Positions 2 through 49,991 of a stretch of 64,000 nucleotides of DNA are shown piece after piece. The translations under genes were made by a program, and so were the position numbers. Numbering within the stretch: position 1 is the stretch's first letter; the number at the start of each line of letters is the position of its first letter. The notes below the pieces were generated by a model that saw only the letters and a list, made by a program, of their open reading frames with translations, had not been told where the DNA came from and made no database searches. The DNA is from Dichetophora obliterata (lineage: Eukaryota; Arthropoda; Insecta; Diptera; Sciomyzidae), in NCBI GenBank assembly GCA_963920525.1, contig OY986437.1, forward strand, positions 194,885,511 through 194,949,510, in the 5' to 3' direction.

Positions 2-527
2 GGATTTTTCGGGAGAGTGGCTGCGAAAAAACCACTTCTGCGACCACCAAACAAGAAGAAAAGATTGGAAGTTGCCATGTAACATAAAGACTGGACTATT
101 GATCCATGGAAATCGTTCCAGTTACGAGGGAGTTGATGAACTCGTTAAAATTTATGGCATATTGAAACTGAAAAACTATCATCGTATACTGCAGTACTGC
201 ACAATACCATCTGGAATTGGCCTTATCGGTTATGGATTCAGCTATCAACAAGACTATGATCCCAAGTACACTTTAAAGTTGTGTTCTACCTATTTAGAAT
301 GAAAAGAAGAAGGAGTGATGCAAAAAATAGTTTGGCCTCCGCAATCTCCAGATGCAAATCCTATCGAATTGCTGTGGGAAGAAATGGATCGTCAAGTGAG
401 AGATTTGAAACCAACCAGCCAAATTTTCATGTGGAATTATTTGAACGAGGTTTGGAACAACTTTCAAATACAAAAGCTTCAAAATTTTTTCAATAGAATG
501 CCCAGAACCTGTGCTGCTATAATATAA
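2..527 (+). pseudogene. Tc1-like transposase remnant
   Basis: A decayed Tc1-family transposase, the enzyme that cuts and pastes its element at TA sites. Near position 2 the frame reads GRVAAKKPLLR followed by a lysine-rich stretch, as in the second helix-turn-helix region of Tc1 proteins. A run ending in WTIDPWKSFQ follows, and 315-527 gives the C-terminal block WPPQSPDANPIELLW with the last catalytic acidic residue region. The pieces lie in different frames with several stops, so it is dead. The 5' part lies outside the window and I found no terminal inverted repeat on the right. Confidence 0.85.
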
Positions 528-624
528 GCAAAAGGTGGTTATTTCTATGAAAAGAAGCTGGCCTGATTACATTAAATTTTATATCTATAAAATATATTAT
601 GTTTTTACAAAAATTAATGTAAAT

Positions 625-836
625 CGTTCAAACCAAGTGCTGGTTAGGCAACCGTCGGTTTTTTTTGTAATCTTGTCAGCTGTTCCTTCGATTAGCAGCT
701 TACCGAAACCACAACTTGTCGTTAACGTAATCAGCACTTAACTGACAGTTAAGCCTGAACCGAACTTTGAGAAAGAGCTGTTTTGCTAACTGCTGATTAA
801 AGTTCTGATTAGTGCTTAACCGGAGATTGAGAAAGC
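625..836. mobile_element. Partial PIF/Harbinger-like MITE
   Basis: A 5'-truncated relative of the complete MITE at 16455-17041. Shared landmarks in the same order are a CAGCTGTTC stretch, TTAACTTAATCGGCACTTAA-like sequence, CCGAAC.TTGAGAAAG, TTTTGCTAAC and the terminal GAGAAAGCGGCCCTAA. The right end GGCCC followed by TAA fits the TTA target preference of the complete copy. No open frame is present. It immediately follows the Tc1 relic. Confidence 0.6.
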
Positions 837-2247
837 GGCCCTAAGTCTGCTAAAAACGGCAACAAACATAAGAAGTTAATTTTTTATTAAGGGTTTCCAA
901 ACTTTTGACCGGCAGTATAGATTTCTTGTCCAAGGTTTCCATTTGAGCCATAATTCATACAAAAACTCATCCTTGATGTGAGTAGTTCCAGTACAAAATG
1001 ATTGGCCATATTATCGTTCACTTATAAAAATCATATAAAAGTTCCATAGAAACCACAAAAGGTCAGATATTAGCCAGTCATTGAAGCCTATTAAGCTGCA
1101 ACAAGCTCTAGTAAACTGTAAAAAGCTGGCCAAACTTATTGTAATATAGTCTCTTGTCCAAAGACAATAAAAACCTATGAGAATCGGCTTGGATGCGTCT
1201 AAATCGTGAAAACGCGAATACTTAAAAACGTGAACGAGTGAACGAACCTGTTTACTCGTGTAGTTTTGCTACTGCACGTGTAGTACGTGCTTAAGATTCA
1301 CGTGTAGTTCGAGTACGTATTTTCAAAAATTAACTTCACGTAGTTCGAACTTCCGTGTACACGTGTAGTTCGAAACACGTGCTTAACCCAATAATGACAA
1401 CGTGATATATCATACGTGATAAAAGCATTTTTTAAAAATTCCTCAAAAATCCTCAGCCATTGTAAAGCTTTTGCTTCCAACAGTAAGAAAATTTATAAAA
1501 TTGACATTAAAAGCCTTTTTATGTACTTTTTCGCGCCAGTTCGTCAAGTATTTAAAAAAAGTGAACAATGCCACTCAGGTGAGTTATTTTGCTTTATAAA
1601 CCTCAAGAAAAAGAAAATGTAATTAAAAAAGTGCATTAGGTTAAAGTGGAACGACTACGCTACGAAATAAAAAATTTTGCAATTTATAATTTTTTCTAAT
1701 TTTTTTTTAGATTTTTTTTATTTCTCTACTTACAAACGTTTATAATCATGCGTTACCCTTATGCGTTTATAATCATGCGCTTCGCCACACCCAAATCCTT
1801 TAGATGTTTTTTTTTAACTTCAGAGTTTTCCGTCTTATATTAATACAAACTTTTGCTGAAAATTTCAAAAGCATTAATGGGTTAAGTTGGAGCTCTACTA
1901 TAAACGCTTTTAAGAGCAATTCGTTCATAATAAATGCAAAGTCGTTGATCATAAAAATTATGGAAATTAAAAATTGAGCACATTGAGGACTGTATCGAAA
2001 AGAAACTGCACACTTTCAATTTAATTTTAATACTTTTCGCAGTGTAGATGTTTGATTGCAATGCGGTAAACACCGTTAGAAAGTATAATTAATTGTTCCT
2101 TCTTTCTCCTCTATTCTTATCTTAGTTTTTGCGATGCCTCAAGTCGTAGAGCTCGTGCATAAGAAAATTCTGCGTACAAAAAAATACTTACAAAAATCTA
2201 ACTAAAGGTATAAAGCTGGTGTAAAGCTGGTAGAATCAGAAATAGTA
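837..2247. other. Gene-free AT-rich stretch with ACGTG-rich patch
   Basis: I see no gene here. Positions 1205-1390 hold about ten ACGTG cores, many as ACGTGTAGTTCGA-like units in both orientations, a degenerate short repeat and not a coding segment. At 1739-1780 a short TTTATAATCATGCG unit is duplicated in tandem. The remainder is low-complexity sequence. Confidence 0.5.
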
Positions 2248-2559
2248 TAATAAATAGGGATATTTGATATTCATCGATGCATTGGATCTACTCGATGTTT
2301 ACATTGCGATACATCGACTAGATCCGATATTTTGTAAAGCTATTGATTTACTCGATGAATTGATGTATTTTCATAAAACATCGAAAGAATTTTAGCCAGC
2401 TTATGAAATTGCATAAAAGAATAAATAAATTAGAGCCTGTGCCGCGCTTCTGGCAGCGTAAATACAAGTAACAGTTACCAAAGTTTAATGTGTAATGTAA
2501 ACATAGCTTAAACGTAATCTAGAAATGGATATTGGCAGCGCGAGGAAGATTTTTCTTTT

Positions 2560-2913
2560 CCTGAGTTACACACAGTACCAAGAAAGAGTAAGACAGCGAG
2601 ATAGTACCGCAAGCCAAGAAACCACATAGTATATCATGGTACACGGATGGCTCGAAAACATTGGAAGGTGTAGGCGCAGGGGTGTACGGGTCAAGAATTA
2701 AGCACTCTGAACCTATTGGGACAATACCCAGTATCTTCCTAGTAATACAGCTGTGTGCACAATTCAACCTAGACCGGAAATACAAGGGTCAGGATATTAT
2801 GTGATGTCGGGCAGTCAAGCAGCAATTAAAGCAATAGTTTCCTGTGAAATATCATTGAGAATAGCATGGGAATGCCCAAAAAACTTAATGAACTAGGCAA
2901 GAATAACACCGTT
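2560..2913 (+). pseudogene. LINE RNase H domain, first half
   Basis: Conceptual translation from about 2631 gives YTDGSKT and GVGAGVYG, the opening of the RNase H domain of R1/jockey-type LINEs, which removes the RNA template. The later block reads SGSQAAIKA where the family has SDSQAA, so one catalytic aspartate is already lost. The frame ends in LNELGKNNTV at the Polinton insertion and resumes at 5676 with TVTILWVPEHKG. Stops and frame changes upstream show the element was dead. ACCGTT (2908-2913) is the left copy of the insertion's target duplication. Confidence 0.8.
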
Positions 2914-3128
2914 AGTAGAGTAGCTATGAGAGTTCTGGCTCAAAAACGCGTGTATTTTCTTATGGGCCTCCAAATTCACAAAATTGTGGCAAACTGCGCA
3001 GTCGGCGTCGCTGCCCGAAAGTAGTGTATTTTGTTGTTGTTTGGTGCGCCCTACGATCGGTCAAGTTGGCTGATAGTAGGGTGGCTGAAGCGTGTTGTTG
3101 TTGTTGCAAATTGGCGATAAGCATGCAA
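2914..3128 (+). repeat. Left terminal inverted repeat of the Polinton-like element
   Basis: The reverse complement of 5461-5675; all 215 positions align without gaps and I find one mismatch (a T/C in the GGCAAACTGCGC stretch). It contains a (GTT)n-like tract near 3106 and a GATCGGTCAAG motif that recurs just inside at about 3160. Such ends are bound by the integrase and, in family models, prime protein-linked replication. Confidence 0.9.
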
Positions 3129-3424
3129 GATGTACGGACGGAGGGATAGCTAGGGGGGTATGATCGGTCAAGCTAGCTGAAGTGGGAGATAAGCAAGCAT
3201 AGAAGACGTATGGGCAGACAGTCGGACAGATAGTCAGATGGATGGACGGACGGGGAGATAGCTAGAAGGTGATAAGCCCAAGCTTCAAAGCGAGCATAAT
3301 GTTTATAGTTTTAAGTCGCTACATAAACTTCGGTGGTGTTGTTGTTGTTATAAATCAGCATTTCAAGTTTAAGGTGATAAGCCCAGACCCAAAACAAAGA
3401 GAATAATGTATAGAAGTAAAGAGT

Positions 3425-3496
3425 GTAGTTGTTATGCATTTTAATAATTTTAATATAAGTTGACTGACTAATGTAAAAACAAAGTATGAAAGCAGC
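3425..3496 (+). repeat. Left subterminal inverted repeat of the Polinton-like element
   Basis: Starting at GTAGTTGTTATGCA and ending at AAAGTATGAAAGCAGC, this segment is a diverged inverted copy of 5045-5116. It lies about 300 bp inside the left terminal repeat; its partner lies about 345 bp inside the right one. CAAGTTTAAG/GATAAG motifs between the two repeat layers also recur on both sides. This suggests an older, longer terminal repeat partly broken up, or a shared terminal replication signal. Confidence 0.7.
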
Positions 3497-3629
3497 AGAA
3501 TAAATTAAGCTATCGATTGAAAGCGATATCATAACCATGACCATCATTGCCAACTATGCCTTTATAAATAAAGCAAAACGAGTTGATTTATATATGAATC
3601 ATTATTGTTCTTTTATTGATTTGCTATAT

Positions 3630-4849
3630 TTAAATAATTCTTATGATTTCCTTTGTTAGAGGAGTGTATTCAATTAAGCGATCATGGATTACCAAACAGT
3701 AAGCTGACGTTTTGTCTGGAATCGGTTTGTTTGCTTCGGTGTAAAACTCAATTCGTACATCAATAGGTCCTGTTTTAACTGCTTCACTTTAATGTGTTAC
3801 ATCAACAACAATAAGCGGCGCTGTTGCCTTATATTCAACAACATTGAGCAATGGTTGAGGTTCCCGCATATAATAATAACTTTGCTGAAATTTTGCATAC
3901 ATATCATATAGAATAGCATACTGTCCCATTTCAAAGCGCGTATTTAAATCATCATAGGGATATGAATCAGAGTTTAAATGAACTTTTAAATTAGTTATAT
4001 TACAATGGTCGAACGTATTTCCTTCCTCTTTGCTCCTCTCATTTTGTAGACCAATAATAAGAAATCTAGGTCTTTCATTTTGCTGACTCAGTTTTACATT
4101 CCATAAAACCTTTGTACTTTTACTTTCTGAAATCCTAGGATTTACATGACAGTCCCAACTTCGAAAAGCCATTAAAATAGGGTTTTCATTATAATTATCT
4201 TGTACATTTCCAATTTCGAAAAGTCCGATAGTTGTATGTGACGCATTTTCCATGTTATATCCAGTATTGTCAATTTTAATTGATCTGCGGCATTAGTAGG
4301 ATAATATGAGCTATCATTAGACGAAGAACGTTGAAGGATAAGCTCATGCTTCGAATTTAATATTATTTTAGTGTAATCTTCGGCAAATCCCATCAACATT
4401 TTTAGTGGTATACAGCAACTAAAGTGATTTTTTTCCAAAGTTAGACTTTCATCAGGACACCAACCAGTGTTTTTTAATGCATCGCTTTCAGCTTTATTCA
4501 ATGATACAAAATTTTTCATGGTGGATGAAATTCCAAGATTGCGTGTACGATCAACTTCAAAACCATTAATTTCATATCGAATTTCGCCAAACAAATATGA
4601 CACAAAGTTATTTTTAAATTTCACACCTGTTGTTGCCACATCTTTTCCACCTTCACGTTTTACTATAAAACCATGAATGTAAATCATACTCTCACTTGGT
4701 AAGACAAATAGGTCCTGATTTTGAATTGGTATACGAATCTCATCGTTATTGTTGAATGATTTTAAATAGGGAGAGTAGCTATGGTAGTCCCTCTTTATAA
4801 TACTCTCATCATATATTGGTTTTTTAAGGACATTCAATATTTCGTTCAT
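3630..4849 (-). pseudogene. Double-jelly-roll major-capsid-like protein of a Polinton/Maverick
   Basis: About 406 codons from ATG at 4849 to TAA at 3630. The product resembles the double-jelly-roll capsid-like proteins of insect Maverick-type elements: an N-terminal block with NEILNVLKKP, a central PLKMLMGFAEDYTK block, then MAFRSWD, FDHCNITNLK, YAILYDMYAKFQ and a C-terminal AYCLVIHDRLIEYTPLT block. The gene is broken by a one-base frame change near 4185-4215 and by an in-frame stop at 3789-3791; the downstream frame stays open and conserved to 3630. Capsid proteins of this fold build icosahedral shells in Polinton relatives. No other Polinton gene is left. Assignment rests on remembered motifs, not a search. 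Confidence 0.8.
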
Positions 4850-5044
4850 GATTAAAGCTGAAATCCCAAGAACTTACAATTTTTATGTTTAATGTTGATA
4901 ACAGATTCTTTTTTATATGTCCTCGCTCGAGAGTTGATGTAGGACTAAATGGACGGCACAGTTGAGTATGGTCATGCTTATGATGACGCTTTGACTCTCT
5001 AGCTTAATTTTATCATTAACCCCGCAGCCGTCGCAGCCGCCTTT

Positions 5045-5116
5045 GCTGCTTTCATACTTTGTCTTTACATTAGTCAACCAACTCATATTAAATTTATTTA
5101 AATGCTTAACAACTAC
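5045..5116 (-). repeat. Right subterminal inverted repeat of the Polinton-like element
   Basis: Diverged inverted partner of 3425-3496. Flanking sequence (5015-5045) is locally GC-rich with GCAGCCG/TCGCAGCCGCC repeats, unlike the rest of the element. The 4850-5460 interval holds no gene, only short GATAAG/CTTATC-type subterminal motifs. Confidence 0.7.
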
Positions 5117-5460
5117 CTTGCTGCCTTATCTTGAACTTGTGGTTTTTGGCACGCTTATTATGCTTACTATGAAGCTTGGACTTATCATCTTTAACCTGAA
5201 ATTTGTAGCGACTTAAATTCATAAACATATTATATTAAACAAGCATGGGAAAAATAACAAATATTTTACTTCTTCACTGTTTCCTTATCTTAAACTTGTT
5301 GTTTTGGGTCCGCTTATAAGGGGTAAAGAAGTAAGCAGTGAAACGGAATGATCGATATAAAGAGAGGGGGATAGAGTGATAAATAAAGGGGGCAAGAGGG
5401 AGAGAAAGGGTTACTCACAATTTTTGTTCCATCTAGTTAGCTGGCTGTCGATCCACCATA

Positions 5461-5675
5461 TTGCATGCTTATCGCCAATTTGCAACAACAACAACACGCT
5501 TCAGCCACCCTACTATCAGCCAACTTGACCGATCGTAGGGCGCACCAAACAACAACAAAATACACTACTTTCGGGCAGCGACGCCGACTGCGCGGTTTGC
5601 CACAATTTTGTGAATTTGGAGGCCCATAAGAAAATACACGCGTTTTTGAGCCAGAACTCTCATAGCTACTCTACT
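5461..5675 (-). repeat. Right terminal inverted repeat of the Polinton-like element
   Basis: Partner of 2914-3128, ending in CTCTACT directly before the target duplication ACCGTT at 5676-5681. Near identity of the two ends contrasts with the decayed capsid gene. Either the element moved recently by borrowed machinery, or the ends were homogenised by conversion. Confidence 0.9.
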
Positions 5676-6275
5676 ACCGTTACTATACTCTGGGTCCCAG
5701 AACACAAAGGAAAACAAGGTTACGAAGAAGCTGATGACTTAGCGCGACAAGGCGTAGCGACAAAATGTATACGACCAGAACCATTCTGCGGATTGCGCAC
5801 ACATTCTATAACAGAAGAACTAAGGAGGAAGGAGAGACAAAAACGATCAAACCTGTGGAAAAGCCTTCCAAAGCTAAGACAATCTAAATTGCTCCTCAAA
5901 GATTTTAGCACTTGGATAACAAAATTGTGTATAAGCTTAGGCAAACAAAATCTAAGAATTTAAACGGGGTTTCTTACAGGACGGGGCTTACACTGTAAAC
6001 CTAAATATCACTTGATGAAATTGGGCATCGAAACCGAAAGCAACTGCCGTTTCTGTGAAGAAGCTGAGGAGACTCCAATACAGCTACTTACAAACGCTGT
6101 AGCTCGCAGACGTAAGCTAGGTCTGGGGAACTTTGAGTGGAGTCTAGAGCTAATTTCATCCCTTGAACCTAAAAACATACTCAAATTCATAATTCCCAAA
6201 ACTCAAATTTGGGGATTATGTTCCTTGGGGTTATCTTACGTCACCGTTAAGGAAAGGGCTGACTTCATTGTGATG
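5676..6275 (+). pseudogene. LINE RNase H C-terminus and zinc-knuckle tail
   Basis: Continuation of the LINE at 2560-2913. The frame reads TVTILWVPEHKG, then EEADDLARQG and PEPFCGL, the end of RNase H with the invariant late block (WVPEHKG..EEAD). From about 5965 a second frame gives a TGRG, HLMKLGI and CRFCEEAEETPIQLL block, the cysteine-rich C-terminal motif of R1/jockey-type ORF2. A stop after about 5960 and a frame change separate the two pieces. The 3' end fades near 6275. Confidence 0.8.
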
Positions 6276-34587: not shown

Positions 34588-34784
34588 CAGCCAATTATGA
34601 AGCCTTTCTCTCATGAAATCGGAAAAGAGAGCTTTATTTTTTAAGATTTTTTTTAACACTTATGTATATTGACGGTTGATGAACAAATTTCCATTAAAAA
34701 TTTCCAAAATGTTCTTGAACTTTATCTTAAAAATGAAAACTCTCTTTTTCGATTCCCCGGGAGAAAAGTTTTATGATTGGGCTG
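34588..34784. mobile_element. MITE with TTTTTAAGATA arms, copy 2
   Basis: About 197 bp; arms CAGCCAATTATGAAGC through GGAAAAGAGAGCTTTATTTT and, inverted, CAGCCCAATCATAAAAC through GAAAAAGAGAGTTTTCATT. It shares a middle segment with 31110-31334. The right end lies about 20 bp from the start of the tandem array, which may have expanded from its flank. Confidence 0.75.
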
Positions 34785-34803
34785 AATATAAATATTTTTT
34801 AAA

Positions 34804-37450
<2,647 letters not shown>

Positions 37451-37459
37451 TAAATTTAA

Positions 37460-38280
37460 AATAAACCGAAAAATAAATATTATATTAAAAAAAAAATAAG
37501 ACTGAATGTTGATTCTAAAGTAAATTGTACGTTTGTTGTGATAAATTCATAAATGCTTTTCCAGTTAAATTTTGCAAAAATACAAATAAATACTGCATAA
37601 ACGATGAAAATTCATTATATGTACTTTAGTCGAACACTTTTTCGGCACTATTTTTTTATGACAGAAATTTTATTTTGCAGAAAACAATAAATAAAAACAT
37701 TACTTTTATCACATATTACCCATTCGATTTCATTGGCCCAATTTAAAACTATGGCCAACACACAAACCTTTCTCTTACTAAATTTTAAATAAAAAGCAAA
37801 ATAATAAAATTGAAATAAATGAAAAATAATACATAGATATTTTAATTCGTAAAAAATAAAAAAAATTTATTGATAAATAAATTTAATAATATTTAAATTG
37901 AATAACAAATAAATTGAATAATTATAAAATATAATATATGAAAAAAAAGTTCAAGATACAACTTTTGTTAAAAAAATTAGTATGTAATAATATAAAGTGA
38001 ATAAAAAAATAATACAAATAAAAGGTAATAATAAAATGTAAATATGTAAAAATTAAAAGAAAACTCCGAAAAAATGTGCAATAAATAAGCCAAAAAAAGG
38101 TGGTCTGTTCTTAAAAAATTCTGCTCGTTTTAAGTTTTTAAAAATATTAAGAGTACTTTTAATTTATAGAAATATTTAGCTGCGAAATTACTGCAAATGC
38201 TGATATTTATAAAAAATAAGCTCGAGAAAACGTATTTTGTGCAATAAAACAAAGTATTGAGTAAAAAATAATCCAAAAAA
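37460..38280. other. AT-rich stretch upstream of Ehbp1
   Basis: No gene or terminal repeats recognised. Composition stays strongly A-rich down to the change of character near 38281. Confidence 0.4.
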
Positions 38281-40870: not shown

Positions 40871-43652
40871 ATAGGTTATCCCTTTACTATCAAAATGTAA
40901 GGGGATTACGCTCTAAGACGCGAGACATATTTTTAATGTCTCAGAATTTCTCTGAGGATATTATCGCACTGACTGAAACTTGGTTAAACGGAAGCATTAC
41001 TGACTTAGAATTGTTTGAAGGAACTCCTTCGTTAGTTCCATTATTGTTATTCCCTGCTCTGCTAACATCGAACTTATATGCGTCAAGGTTGTACATTCCA
41101 ATTCTAATGTATATCTTATTAATGCATACGTTCCTCCTAAGAGCAGTGTAGAAGTTTATGCAAGCCTTGCGGATTGCATAGAATATGTCATAAGCATAAT
41201 TGACGTTAATGACGACATTTAATTGTTAGGTGATTTTAATCTGCCTGACTTGAAATGGGAATCTTCTGACGATGATACATATTTTTGTGCATCTAATTCG
41301 AAGACTCGCCAAGAGCATATATTTGTTGATAATATATGTTCTGACTTACAACAAGTGAGTTGTATTTATAATAGTCGTGAAAGACTTCTTGACCTGGTCT
41401 TAACTACAGATAGTAACAATGTGATTGTTGAGAGGGCCCCTCATGTTTTGACTGCTGTTGATGAATACCATCCACCATTGAGCATATGGTACAAATCAGA
41501 CAGGGATAATATAGTAAAGTCTAACTCAATAGATAAAGTTTATGAATTCAATTTTAAAAAAGCTGACTTTTTGAAGTTGAATCATTTACTTCAAAGTAAA
41601 CTTCATGTTATTTTAGAATATGTTAATAATAACACTCTTGATAATTCAATTAATTTTTTTTATATGGAAATCTTTGCTATGTTTTCTCTGTCCGTGCCAT
41701 ATAGCCTCAAATTTACGAAAAATTGTGCTTACCCCTGGTACACAAAGGAGTTAAAGATTCTTCGCAACAGCAGGAATAGGGCATGGAAAAAATATGTCTG
41801 TAGCTTAGACTTGAATGACCTAGAAATCTACAAGCGTTTGTTTCTGGATTTTGAAAATTGCTCAGCTACCTTATATCAAAATTATTTAGACAGTACTAAG
41901 CTGAGAATATTGTCTGATCCGAAGAAATTCTGGGGTTTCATAAACACCAAAAAAAAATCTGATGGATTCCCTTCATCATTTAAGACCTCTGACGGATTTA
42001 CTGACGATCCTGTCGTAATTTGTGGTCTATTTGCCAATCTCTTTAAAGAGTCATTTTGTTCAGACTCTTTTAATCCTGATGAAGAGTACTTTGAATATAT
42101 GAACTCTACACCCAGGGTTTCGTTGGATTCTATATCCTTTACTTCAGAGGATATTTTAAAGTATATTGGGTTGATCGATGAGGATTTTAATGCTGGACCT
42201 GACGGAATTCCTGCCGCAGTGTTAACACGATGTGGTTCCGTTCTAAGTCAACCACTGTCCATGTTATTCAATAAATCAATTAGCGAAAGTATTTTTCCAC
42301 TTTTTTGGAAAAAATCTTTTATAGGTCCTATCTATAAAAAAGGTTGTAAGAACGATATAAACAACTACAGGCCTATCGCGAAACTCTCGTCAATTCCAAA
42401 ACTTTTTGAGCGCCTCGTGTATGATCGTGTGAAAATTCACTGTGGGAAGGTCATGACAACTCGTCAGCATGGATTTGTTACTGGCAGATCCACTGTGTCT
42501 AATCTCCTCGATTTTACAACGTTTTGCTTAAATTCATTTTATTCAGGTAACCAGGTCGACTGTATTTACACTGATTTTAGTAAAGCATTTGATAAACTGC
42601 CACACAACTTAATTCCATTTAAACTAAAGTTAATGGGTTTTCCACAATTTTTTGTAAGCTGGATTCAATCGTATCTGACAGAGCGATCTTATCAAATACG
42701 ATTTCGAGGCGTATTGTCAGCTGAATTTATTGCTGAATCAGGTGTTCCTCAAGGTAGCCACCTTGGTCCACTTCTGTTTATTTTAGCCATTAATCAAACC
42801 CACATCAAACACTCTCATCTACTTATCTATGCAGATGACATGAAAATATACAGAACAATAGATGCTAAAGACAATTCAGATCTGCTCCAGTCTGATTTGA
42901 AATCCTTTGAAATTTGGTGTTCTAAAAACAATAGGTTTCTAAATCCAGATAAATGCCAAACTATGACCTTTTCGCGAAAAAGGAATAATTTAATTTTTGA
43001 TTATACGATAAAAGATACGGCTTTAAATCGTGTAGATTCTGTCAAAGATCTTGGTATATGCATGGATTCTAAGCTATCGTTTAACGTTCATATTGATTAC
43101 ATTTGTAAAAAAGCATCTTCTATGCTCGGGTTTATGAAACGCTGGGCCAAAGAATTTAATAGTATGATCACAACTACAACGCTGTATTATGCAATTGTGC
43201 GACCTCACTTAGAGTATGCAAGTCAAGTTTGGTCCCCAAGTTACAATGTACATGTTGAACGTATAGAGAGAATCCAAAAACGTTTTGTTCGGTTTGCTCT
43301 AAGGGGCTTAAGTGCAACTGACACTTTAAACCTTCCTCCTTATGAGGATCGTTTAAAACTTTTAAAAATGCAATCTTTGAATGAGAGAAGGAAGTCTGCA
43401 GATATCGTCTATTTACACCAACTCATAACTGGTGTTTTCGATTCACCAGAACTTCTAACTCTTATAAATTTTAACACTAACCGTAGAAGCAGTAGAAATG
43501 CTAACAATTTAATTTACTTACCTTTTAGTAGAACAAATTATATGGCTACTGCTCCTTTACATCGCATGAGTACCTTTGTTAACAACTGTAGCTTTTTTGA
43601 TGTTAACTTATCGAAAGGTCAACTCAAAAGTAGATTGAAAACTAATGTATGA
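40871..43652 (+). pseudogene. Jockey/CR1-type LINE ORF2 (endonuclease and reverse transcriptase)
   Basis: The endonuclease part opens LSLYYQNVRGLRSKTRDIF and IALTETWLNGS, then lacks its middle (deletion with frame change near 41030-41065), resumes as INAYVPPKSSVEVY and passes a stop at about 41219-41221 before LLGDFNLPDLKW. From 41226 the frame is open for more than 800 codons: NAGPDGIP, YTDFSKAFDKLPH, SGVPQGSHLGPLLF, and the catalytic YADDMKIY, then the HLEYASQVWSP and SLNERRKSADI tail, ending at 43652. The usual FINDL segment before YADD reads LAINQ. Reverse transcriptase looks complete and young; endonuclease is broken. Confidence 0.9.
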
Positions 43653-48705: not shown

Positions 48706-49991
48706 TTGGGGGTTGGAATTAGTTTTAAAGGTTTTCTAAGAGATGGCGTAACTATCAATAGATCGCATCGGGCACACCTGTGACTATATTCATTTCAAAG
48801 CACATTGTCTAAGCTTCATTTTTTAGTATGTGTCATTCCACTGAAGTGTAAACAACATATATTTTTTTCTCTGTGAACATGTCGACTTTCGTTCCAACAA
48901 AACGCAATTTGCGGGAAGGTTTACTTTTGTGCTTCCATTTGAAGAAAAAAGCGGTTGAAGCACAACGCACGCTTACTGAGGCTTACGGGGACTATGCTCC
49001 ATCGGTTTCTACTTGTGAGTACTGGTTCCGTCGGTTTAAAAAAGGTGATTTTGATACGGAAGACAAAGAGCGTCCGGGCCAGCCGAAAAAGTTTGAAGAT
49101 GAGGAATTGGAGGCTTTGCTCGATGAAGACCCGTGTCAAACCCTTCAAGAATTGTCAGAATCATTGGGAGTCGACTTATCAACGGTCGGCAAACGCTTGA
49201 AGGCCATGGGAATGATTCAAAAGCAAGGAAATTGGGTGCCGTACCAGTTGAAGCCGAGAGACGTTGAACGGCGATTTTGCATGTGCGAACAACTGCTTCA
49301 ACGGCATAAAAGGAAGAGTTTTTTGCATCGTATTGTCACTGGCGATGAAAAGTGGATCCATTACGATAATCCTAAGCGAAAAAAATCGTGGGGACCACCC
49401 GGCCATGCATCAACATCGAGGGCCAAGCCGAATATTCATGGCGCCAAGCTTATGCTGTGTATTTGGTGGGATCAGAAGGGTGTCGTGTACTATGAGCTGC
49501 TAAAACCTAACGAAGCCATCACTGGGGAACGCTACCAACAACAATTGATGCAATTGAGCCGAGCATTAAAGGTTAAACGGCCGGAATATGCCAAAAGACA
49601 CGACAAAGTGGTTTTTCAACATGACAGGCACGGCCACATGTTGCAAGAACCGTCAAGGAAACGTTGGAGGCGCTGAATTGGGATGTGCTACCCCACCCGC
49701 CTTATAGCCCAGACATAGCCCCTTCCGACTACCACCTATTCAGATCGATGACGCATGGCTTGGCTGAGCAGCGCTTCACTTCTTACGAGGATACCAAAAA
49801 ATGGGTCGATTCGTGGATTGCCTCAAAAGACGAATCGTTCTTCCGGCGCGAAATCCATATGCTGCCAGAAAGATGGGAAAATGTTGTAGCTAACGATGGA
49901 CAATACTTTGAATAATATACATTGTACCGTTGTTTCTAAATAAATGCTCAAAAACCGAAAAAAAACCTTTAAAATTAATTCCAACCCCCAA
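48706..49991 (+). mobile_element. Mariner element, nearly intact
   Basis: A 1286-bp element with 30-bp ends TTGGGGGTTGGAATTA.. inverted with one mismatch, flanked by TA at 48704-48705 and 49992-49993. Size and layout are those of a full mariner. It is the innermost and so the youngest layer of this nest; its gene has one visible frame break. Confidence 0.92.
48879..49915 (+). pseudogene. Mariner transposase (DD34D), one frameshift
   Basis: About 345 codons. ATG at 48879 (MSTFVPTKRNLREGLLLCF). N-terminal helix-turn-helix region with LTEAYGD and CEYWFRRFKKGDFD, linker WVPYQLKPRDVERR, then IVTGDEKWIHYDNP (first Asp), VVFQHD (second Asp) and PPYSPDIAPSDYHLF (third Asp), ending LPERWENVVANDGQYFE. 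Closest by eye to the mauritiana-type mariners. One missing base near 49626, right after the second Asp, throws the frame; all else is open. Expressed, it would give a truncated protein. Confidence 0.92.

What the first reader, a model, noticed from the sequence alone, without database searches (positions are those of the whole stretch)
2914..5675. Miniature capsid-only Polinton/Maverick
A 2.76 kb element has all structural hallmarks of a Polinton (AG..CT ends, 215-bp inverted ends, 6-bp duplication ACCGTT) but keeps only a double-jelly-roll capsid-like gene. Full Polintons are far larger, and small derivatives retaining only the capsid gene would be an unusual class. Ends differ at one base while the capsid gene has a frame change and a stop, suggesting mobilisation in trans by a complete relative.
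Basis: partly seen in the sequence, partly recalled or inferred. Interest (0 to 1): 0.9.

Follow-up and report, generated by a model that had tools for sequence, protein, structure and literature searches.

The report
Deleted Polinton capsid element in fly
A short mobile element in what looks like a fly genome carries only a broken virus-shell gene, but it has the same ends as separate elements carrying shell, packaging and DNA-copying genes, as if the genes of one virus-like transposon had been shared out among several pieces.

Summary
Window 2914-5675 has 215-bp inverted ends (1 mismatch), AG..CT termini and an ACCGTT duplication, and sits inside a retrotransposon's RNase H gene. Its gene is a broken double-jelly-roll (DJR) major capsid protein. 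It is an internal deletion (~1.65 kb) of a 4.3-4.4-kb element that encodes the DJR capsid plus a penton.

The same ends recur in this 1.31-Gb genome. Of 22 places classified (of 30 found), 13 carry capsid sequence, 8 are ATPase-class (A32-type packaging ATPase) and 1 carries a B-family DNA polymerase. 13 of 17 copies tested show 6-bp duplications. Genome-wide, 46 of 89 polymerase matches form inverted pairs; in one 17.75-kb element read in part, the ends match and the centre is a palindrome of the ATPase. A fuller Polinton with RVE integrase exists in the genome but was not shown to share these ends.

Best reading: a non-autonomous, end-sharing family derived from Polintons, with shell, packaging and replication genes on different elements, inserted by an integrase acting in trans (inferred). 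The boldest surviving reading is a multipartite Polinton. The genome scan for capsid genes near an integrase did not complete.

The parts
2908..2913 (.). target-site duplication ACCGTT, left copy
   Evidence: empty site
5676..5681 (.). target-site duplication ACCGTT, right copy
   Evidence: empty site
2914..3128 (+). 215-bp terminal inverted repeat, left, starting AGTAGAGTAG
   Evidence: 59 matches in the genome
5461..5675 (-). 215-bp terminal inverted repeat, right, 1 mismatch to the left one
3630..4849 (-). broken DJR major capsid gene in three open pieces (5' piece 4172-4849, middle piece 3789-4292, 3' piece 3630-3788); frame change between the first two, stop between the last two
   Evidence: described only, pieces searched apart
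4950..4956 (.). junction of the internal deletion (element position about 2040); the ~1.55-1.65 kb missing here holds the penton gene in L033 and L038
3425..5116 (.). second pair of imperfect inverted repeats inside the ends (3425-3497 and 5044-5116, 73 nt, 90%), a trace of a more symmetrical layout
2592..5963 (+). host sequence on both sides: RNase H part of a decayed non-LTR-type retrotransposon, interrupted by the element (identified by eye)

Best explanation
Window 2914-5675 is a dead, internally deleted copy of a non-autonomous Polinton-derived element. Its parent type (4.3-4.8 kb) carries two virion-shell genes, DJR major capsid protein and penton, between ends that are shared with separate elements carrying an A32-type packaging ATPase, or a B-family DNA polymerase in a palindromic layout. 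An RVE integrase that recognises the common ends, encoded by a Polinton elsewhere in the genome, inserts all classes and leaves 6-bp duplications; the polymerase copies them beforehand. Shown: ends, duplications, gene content, shared ends over three gene classes, the deletion, past purifying selection on the capsid gene, and presence of an integrase-bearing Polinton in the genome. Inferred: integrase and polymerase acting in trans, and any particle formation.
For: Ends and TSD. DJR capsid by profile and fold. Penton by fold: best match mavirus penton 6g41, E 3.9e-9. Same ends on three gene classes: 13 capsid, 8 ATPase, 1 polymerase of 22 places classified. 6-bp TSDs in 13 of 17 copies tested. 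End identity between classes 93.1-95.1% on average against 96.0-96.2% within the capsid and ATPase classes, with classes intermixed in a tree of 25 ends. ATPase elements keep the gene order of the fuller Polinton: ATPase 88-90% identical, then residues 21-94 of the following ORF, in 8 of 8. Polymerase palindrome L031/L032 keeps a protease-like piece 84-85% identical to that of the fuller Polinton. Integrase there: PF00665 E 8.9e-15. Capsid dN/dS 0.18-0.20 between L048 and three other full copies, 0.09-0.18 for the window's 5' piece against the four.
Against: No integrase was found between these ends in any stretch read. The fuller Polinton's left 3.6 kb lacks the 215-bp end (only matches of up to 68 bp to inner repeats) and its right end was not read. 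4 of 17 copies tested gave no clean 6-bp duplication (L035, L040, L051, and the palindrome at C1:289.22 Mb). dN/dS is 0.36-0.98 in pairs with the divergent copies L040 and L052, and uninformative for the penton (0.27-2.53 or undefined, dS at most 0.021). Only 22 of 30 places were classified.
Confidence: 0.75

Rival explanations
1. Multipartite Polinton (a special case of the best explanation): the shell, packaging and replication elements cooperate in trans as segments of one system.
For: Gene sets look like modules: shell genes MCP and penton stay together in 11 of 13 capsid-class places; polymerase and ATPase elements have the same ends; purifying selection on the capsid gene between L048 and three other copies; no capsid or penton in the 8.9 kb read right of the fuller Polinton's polymerase.
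Against: No evidence of cooperation, particles or expression. Integrase is not on any element with these ends that I read. Complete Polintons in the same genome could supply everything. A distant relative has capsid and polymerase on one contig (L053), so the split is not general.
Confidence: 0.25
2. Plain deletion derivatives (the other special case): one complete Polinton with these ends, not found here, threw off internal deletions, and the classes are simply the ones that amplified; retained genes mean nothing.
For: The window element is itself such a deletion; ATPase elements are collinear with a piece of the fuller Polinton; L035 and L045 are further deletions; several capsid copies are broken.
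Against: Capsid dN/dS well below 1 between L048 and other full copies; repeated recovery of gene-complete classes; no complete Polinton with these ends among the 22 places read, though only 40 of 866 candidates were scored.
Confidence: 0.5
3. A non-Polinton cut-and-paste transposon that captured Polinton genes.
For: No integrase was found between these ends.
Against: Three element classes with Polinton hallmark genes, AG..CT termini and 6-bp duplications; no other transposase was recognised as belonging to these elements, though nested insertions do occur (L044, L043).
Confidence: 0.05

Closest known systems
Polinton / Maverick transposons (Eupolintoviridae)
   Same: long inverted ends, 6-bp duplications, DJR MCP, penton, A32-type ATPase, B-family polymerase
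   Different: known Polintons are 15-20 kb with these genes on one element (PMC4028283, part 1 of 4 of the text read); here they lie on separate short elements, and polymerase elements are palindromic
Segmented bidna-like viruses (Vesanto virus)
   Same: up to twelve segments with similar terminal inverted repeats and a B-family polymerase (PMC8363768 and PMC11071296, passages)
   Different: parvovirus-type single-jelly-roll capsid there, DJR capsid with penton and packaging ATPase here; integrated copies here
Spodoptera Maverick elements with parvovirus VP1-like protein
   Same: the fuller Polinton of this genome also has a phospholipase A2-like ORF
   Different: Sf Mavericks are reported to lack the usual DJR protein (PMC5803895, passages); whether the fuller Polinton here has one was not settled
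Non-autonomous deletion derivatives of DNA transposons
   Same: internal deletion with intact ends
   Different: the parent element keeps a pair of shell genes, under purifying selection for the capsid

Membership tests
Polinton/Maverick | 6-bp target-site duplication | tested here: met
   window ACCGTT; 13 of 17 copies tested
Polinton/Maverick | long terminal inverted repeats with AG..CT ends (rule recalled) | tested here: met
   215 bp, 1 mismatch
Polinton/Maverick | DJR major capsid protein | tested here: met
   PF21738; fold of intact relative
Polinton/Maverick | polymerase B and RVE integrase on the same element | tested here: not met
   neither in the 2.76-kb window element
Polinton/Maverick | ends shared with a polymerase-bearing element | tested here: met
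   L031/L032; C1:289220996-289238745
Polinton/Maverick | ends shared with an integrase-bearing element | tested here: inconclusive
Bidnaviridae / Vesanto-like segmented viruses | parvovirus-type single-jelly-roll capsid | tested here: not met
   DJR fold
Internal deletion derivative of a longer transposon | collinear with a longer element except for one gap, ends kept | tested here: met
   against L033 and L038
Multipartite DNA virus or transposon | segments needed together, packaged or moved together | not testable with these tools
   needs expression or particle data

The most novel reading that the evidence does not exclude
A multipartite Polinton: in this lineage the genome of a virus-like transposon is split into end-sharing segments (MCP+penton; ATPase; polymerase with ATPase as a palindrome) that act in trans and integrate separately, that is, a segmented DJR-capsid system with a palindromic replication segment.
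Probability: 0.25. Interest if true: 0.92.

Novelty: new variant of a known kind. Interest (0 to 1): 0.7.

Why it matters
Whether Polintons are viruses or transposons is a long-standing question. A genome in which shell genes, packaging ATPase and polymerase sit on separate elements with common ends makes it testable: if shell elements without polymerase are kept under selection and spread, capsids matter to them; if not, capsid genes are passengers. The recurring inverted pairs of polymerase genes bear on how Polinton DNA is copied before insertion. For annotation, short unknown fly repeats with PF21738 or orphan A32 ATPase genes can be filed as Polinton derivatives.

Tried and rejected
IMG/VR scans for the capsid (single sequence, then alignment) and the penton gave no confirmed relative. 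The genome-contig scan gave one distant hit, a 4.1-kb contig filed under a Balneolales MAG (L053; that it is not bacterial is my inference), with a capsid 30.6% identical to L033's and part of a polymerase 32% identical to P0111 on one strand. PDB sequence search with the 5' capsid piece: no match. Pfam did not name the 1138-aa polymerase frame (weak Endonuclease_7 below cut-off and zf-MYST); it was identified by motifs read by eye, by its homologues (2732, best 120 listed, some with PF03175) and by the PF03175 genome match at the same place. The penton has no Pfam match, nor has the 190-aa frame of the ATPase elements above a cut-off. dN/dS against L040 and L052 (0.36-0.98) was not used for the selection claim; the two polymerase arms of L031/L032 differ too little (dN 0.0026, dS 0). 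Ends of L035, L040, L045, L051 and L052 were left out of the end comparison. Ten paper searches listed no title on an end-sharing split Polinton; listings only, and passages or a section of seven papers.

The genome search answered only. The others came back busy. So the PF21738, PF04665, penton and second end scans were never run. Counts are lower bounds (40 of 866 and 91 of 520 candidates scored).

Full report
The window lies in an unnamed 1.31-Gb genome of 76 contigs (G000:C3:194885511-194949510). The closest named protein relatives include flies (Lucilia, Haematobia, Calliphora, Drosophila takahashii), so I take it for a fly; the species was not identified. The element 2914-5675 has 215-bp inverted ends with one mismatch, AG..CT termini and an ACCGTT duplication. 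Joining the flanks gives an open RNase H frame across the site.

A deletion copy. Against the 4405-bp and 4322-bp elements L033 and L038 the window element aligns in two blocks, 1-2040 and 2040-2762 (97.0-97.6%), so about 1.55-1.65 kb is missing. The missing part holds a second gene on the other strand, up to 268 aa in L036. It has 489 homologues (120 listed, none named) and no Pfam match. The predicted fold of a relative (P0233, pLDDT 82.7, one low-confidence stretch 130-155) best matches the mavirus penton (E 3.9e-9), then adenovirus penton bases. The gene is present whole or in part in 11 of 13 capsid-class places. So the parent element carries two shell genes.

The same ends on other genes. 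The left end matched 59 times; the 40 long matches belong to 30 places (10 pairs, 20 single ends). I classified 22, window included, and left 8. Thirteen hold capsid sequence: the window, L033-L038, L040, L042, L045, L048, L049, L052; L042 is partly withheld as N. Eight are ATPase-class: L039, L041, L043, L044, L046, L047, L050, L051. Here the frames of L046 and L043 pass the cut-off of Pox_A32 (2.1e-8, 3e-8), a piece of L041 stays below it (20.0 against 22.8 bits), and the L039 frame tested had no such hit; L039, L044, L047, L050 and L051 are assigned by DNA similarity. One, L031/L032, is a 16.5-kb element with a polymerase frame on each arm, itself inserted in a capsid element with CGAATT duplicated. 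Its 1138-aa frame shows exonuclease and polymerase motifs (read by eye, names recalled), has 2732 homologues, some of the 120 listed with PF03175, and is a PF03175 match in the genome scan.

Insertion signature. Six-bp duplications were found in 13 of 17 copies tested: window, L033, L034, L036, L037, L038, L039, L031/L032, L041, L043, L044, L046, L050. L035 and L040 had none as delimited, L051's start was not found, and the palindrome at C1:289220996-289238745 had none. L042, L045, L047, L048, L049 and L052 were not tested. Mean end identity is 96.0% within the capsid class, 96.2% within the ATPase class, 95.1% between them, and 93.1% and 93.5% to the polymerase ends; in a tree of 25 ends an ATPase end (L050) groups with a capsid end (L049, support 0.94) and another (L047) with the polymerase ends (0.67). 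This fits common machinery and exchange of ends.

Palindromes. Of 89 PF03175 matches (91 of 520 candidates scored) 46 form 23 convergent inverted pairs and 43 are unpaired. Of one pair I read the left end (L055, 200 N), the centre (L054) and the right end (L056), not the polymerase stretches: the ends are of the same kind (first 80 bp 95% identical to the window's end), the centre carries an A32-type ATPase twice (6.5e-7), and the inverted halves of the centre are 99.85% identical. No integrase frame was recognised in the parts read. The other pairs, apart from L031/L032, are known by coordinates only.

A fuller Polinton. Right of one polymerase with a 1260-aa frame (C2:60036339; 11 such frames are listed, with bit scores 107.4-109.2) lie a protease-like ORF (Peptidase_C48 0.026, below cut-off; adenain-like by eye), a phospholipase A2-like ORF (3.8e-13), an A32 ATPase (2.3e-7) and an RVE integrase (8.9e-15). 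Its ATPase is 88-90% identical to those of the split elements, and the ATPase elements keep residues 21-94 of the ORF that follows it there, in 8 of 8, so they descend from a Polinton with that order. Its left 3.6 kb has no 215-bp end, only matches of up to 68 bp to inner repeats; the 8.9 kb read to the right show no capsid or penton of this family (best E 0.39). What lies further right could not be read.

Selection. Capsid dN/dS is 0.18-0.20 between L048 and the three other full copies (dS 0.13-0.14), and 0.09-0.18 for the window's 5' piece against the four. The three close copies differ too little (dS at most 0.0125; ratios 0.41-0.66), pairs with L040 or L052 pieces give 0.36-0.98, and penton ratios rest on few changes. 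The capsid gene was thus under purifying selection in the lineage of these copies before this one died.

How it probably works. An integrase in trans inserts DNA with these ends and leaves 6 bp duplicated; a polymerase in trans copies it. Shell, packaging and replication genes ride on different end-sharing elements. Whether they cooperate (multipartite) or are deletion products that a full Polinton drags along is not decided. A distant relative has capsid and polymerase on one contig (L053), which suggests that the split is derived.

Compared with what is known. Polintons are 15-20 kb with these genes on one element (PMC4028283, part 1 of 4 read). Segmented bidna-like viruses share ends between segments but have a parvovirus-type capsid (PMC8363768, PMC11071296; passages). 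Ten paper searches listed nothing on an end-sharing split Polinton; the library holds open-licence papers only. Verdict: a new variant of a known kind, with a bold reading that one unanswered genome scan could settle.

Noticed in passing
G000, 23 inverted PF03175 pairs, e.g. C1:289225362-289234377: 46 of 89 polymerase matches form convergent inverted pairs, most with about 6 kb between the domains: recurrent palindromic elements.
   Followed up: partly
L053 (JAKSCW010000326.1), 240-4120: 4.1-kb contig filed under a Balneolales MAG carries a distant DJR capsid of this family and part of a Polinton-type polymerase on one strand; its first 60 bases are a perfect palindrome.
   Followed up: partly
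L031 1-600 and L032 8567-8694: the 16.5-kb polymerase palindrome is itself inserted in the capsid gene of a related capsid element.
   Followed up: yes
L057 260-1144: phospholipase A2-like ORF (PF08398, 3.8e-13) in the fuller Polinton, reminiscent of the VP1-like protein reported for Spodoptera Mavericks.
   Followed up: no
window 48852-49673 and L050 749-1810: two frames that begin alike (TTYIFFSVNMSTFVPTKRNLREGLL), mariner-transposase-like by eye, not tested.
   Followed up: no
window 34725-37484: long minus-strand frames made of a simple FIYIYLYL-type repeat, a large tandem array.
   Followed up: no
window 41223-43649: 809-aa open frame that looks like a non-LTR retrotransposon endonuclease/RT by eye, not tested.
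   Followed up: no
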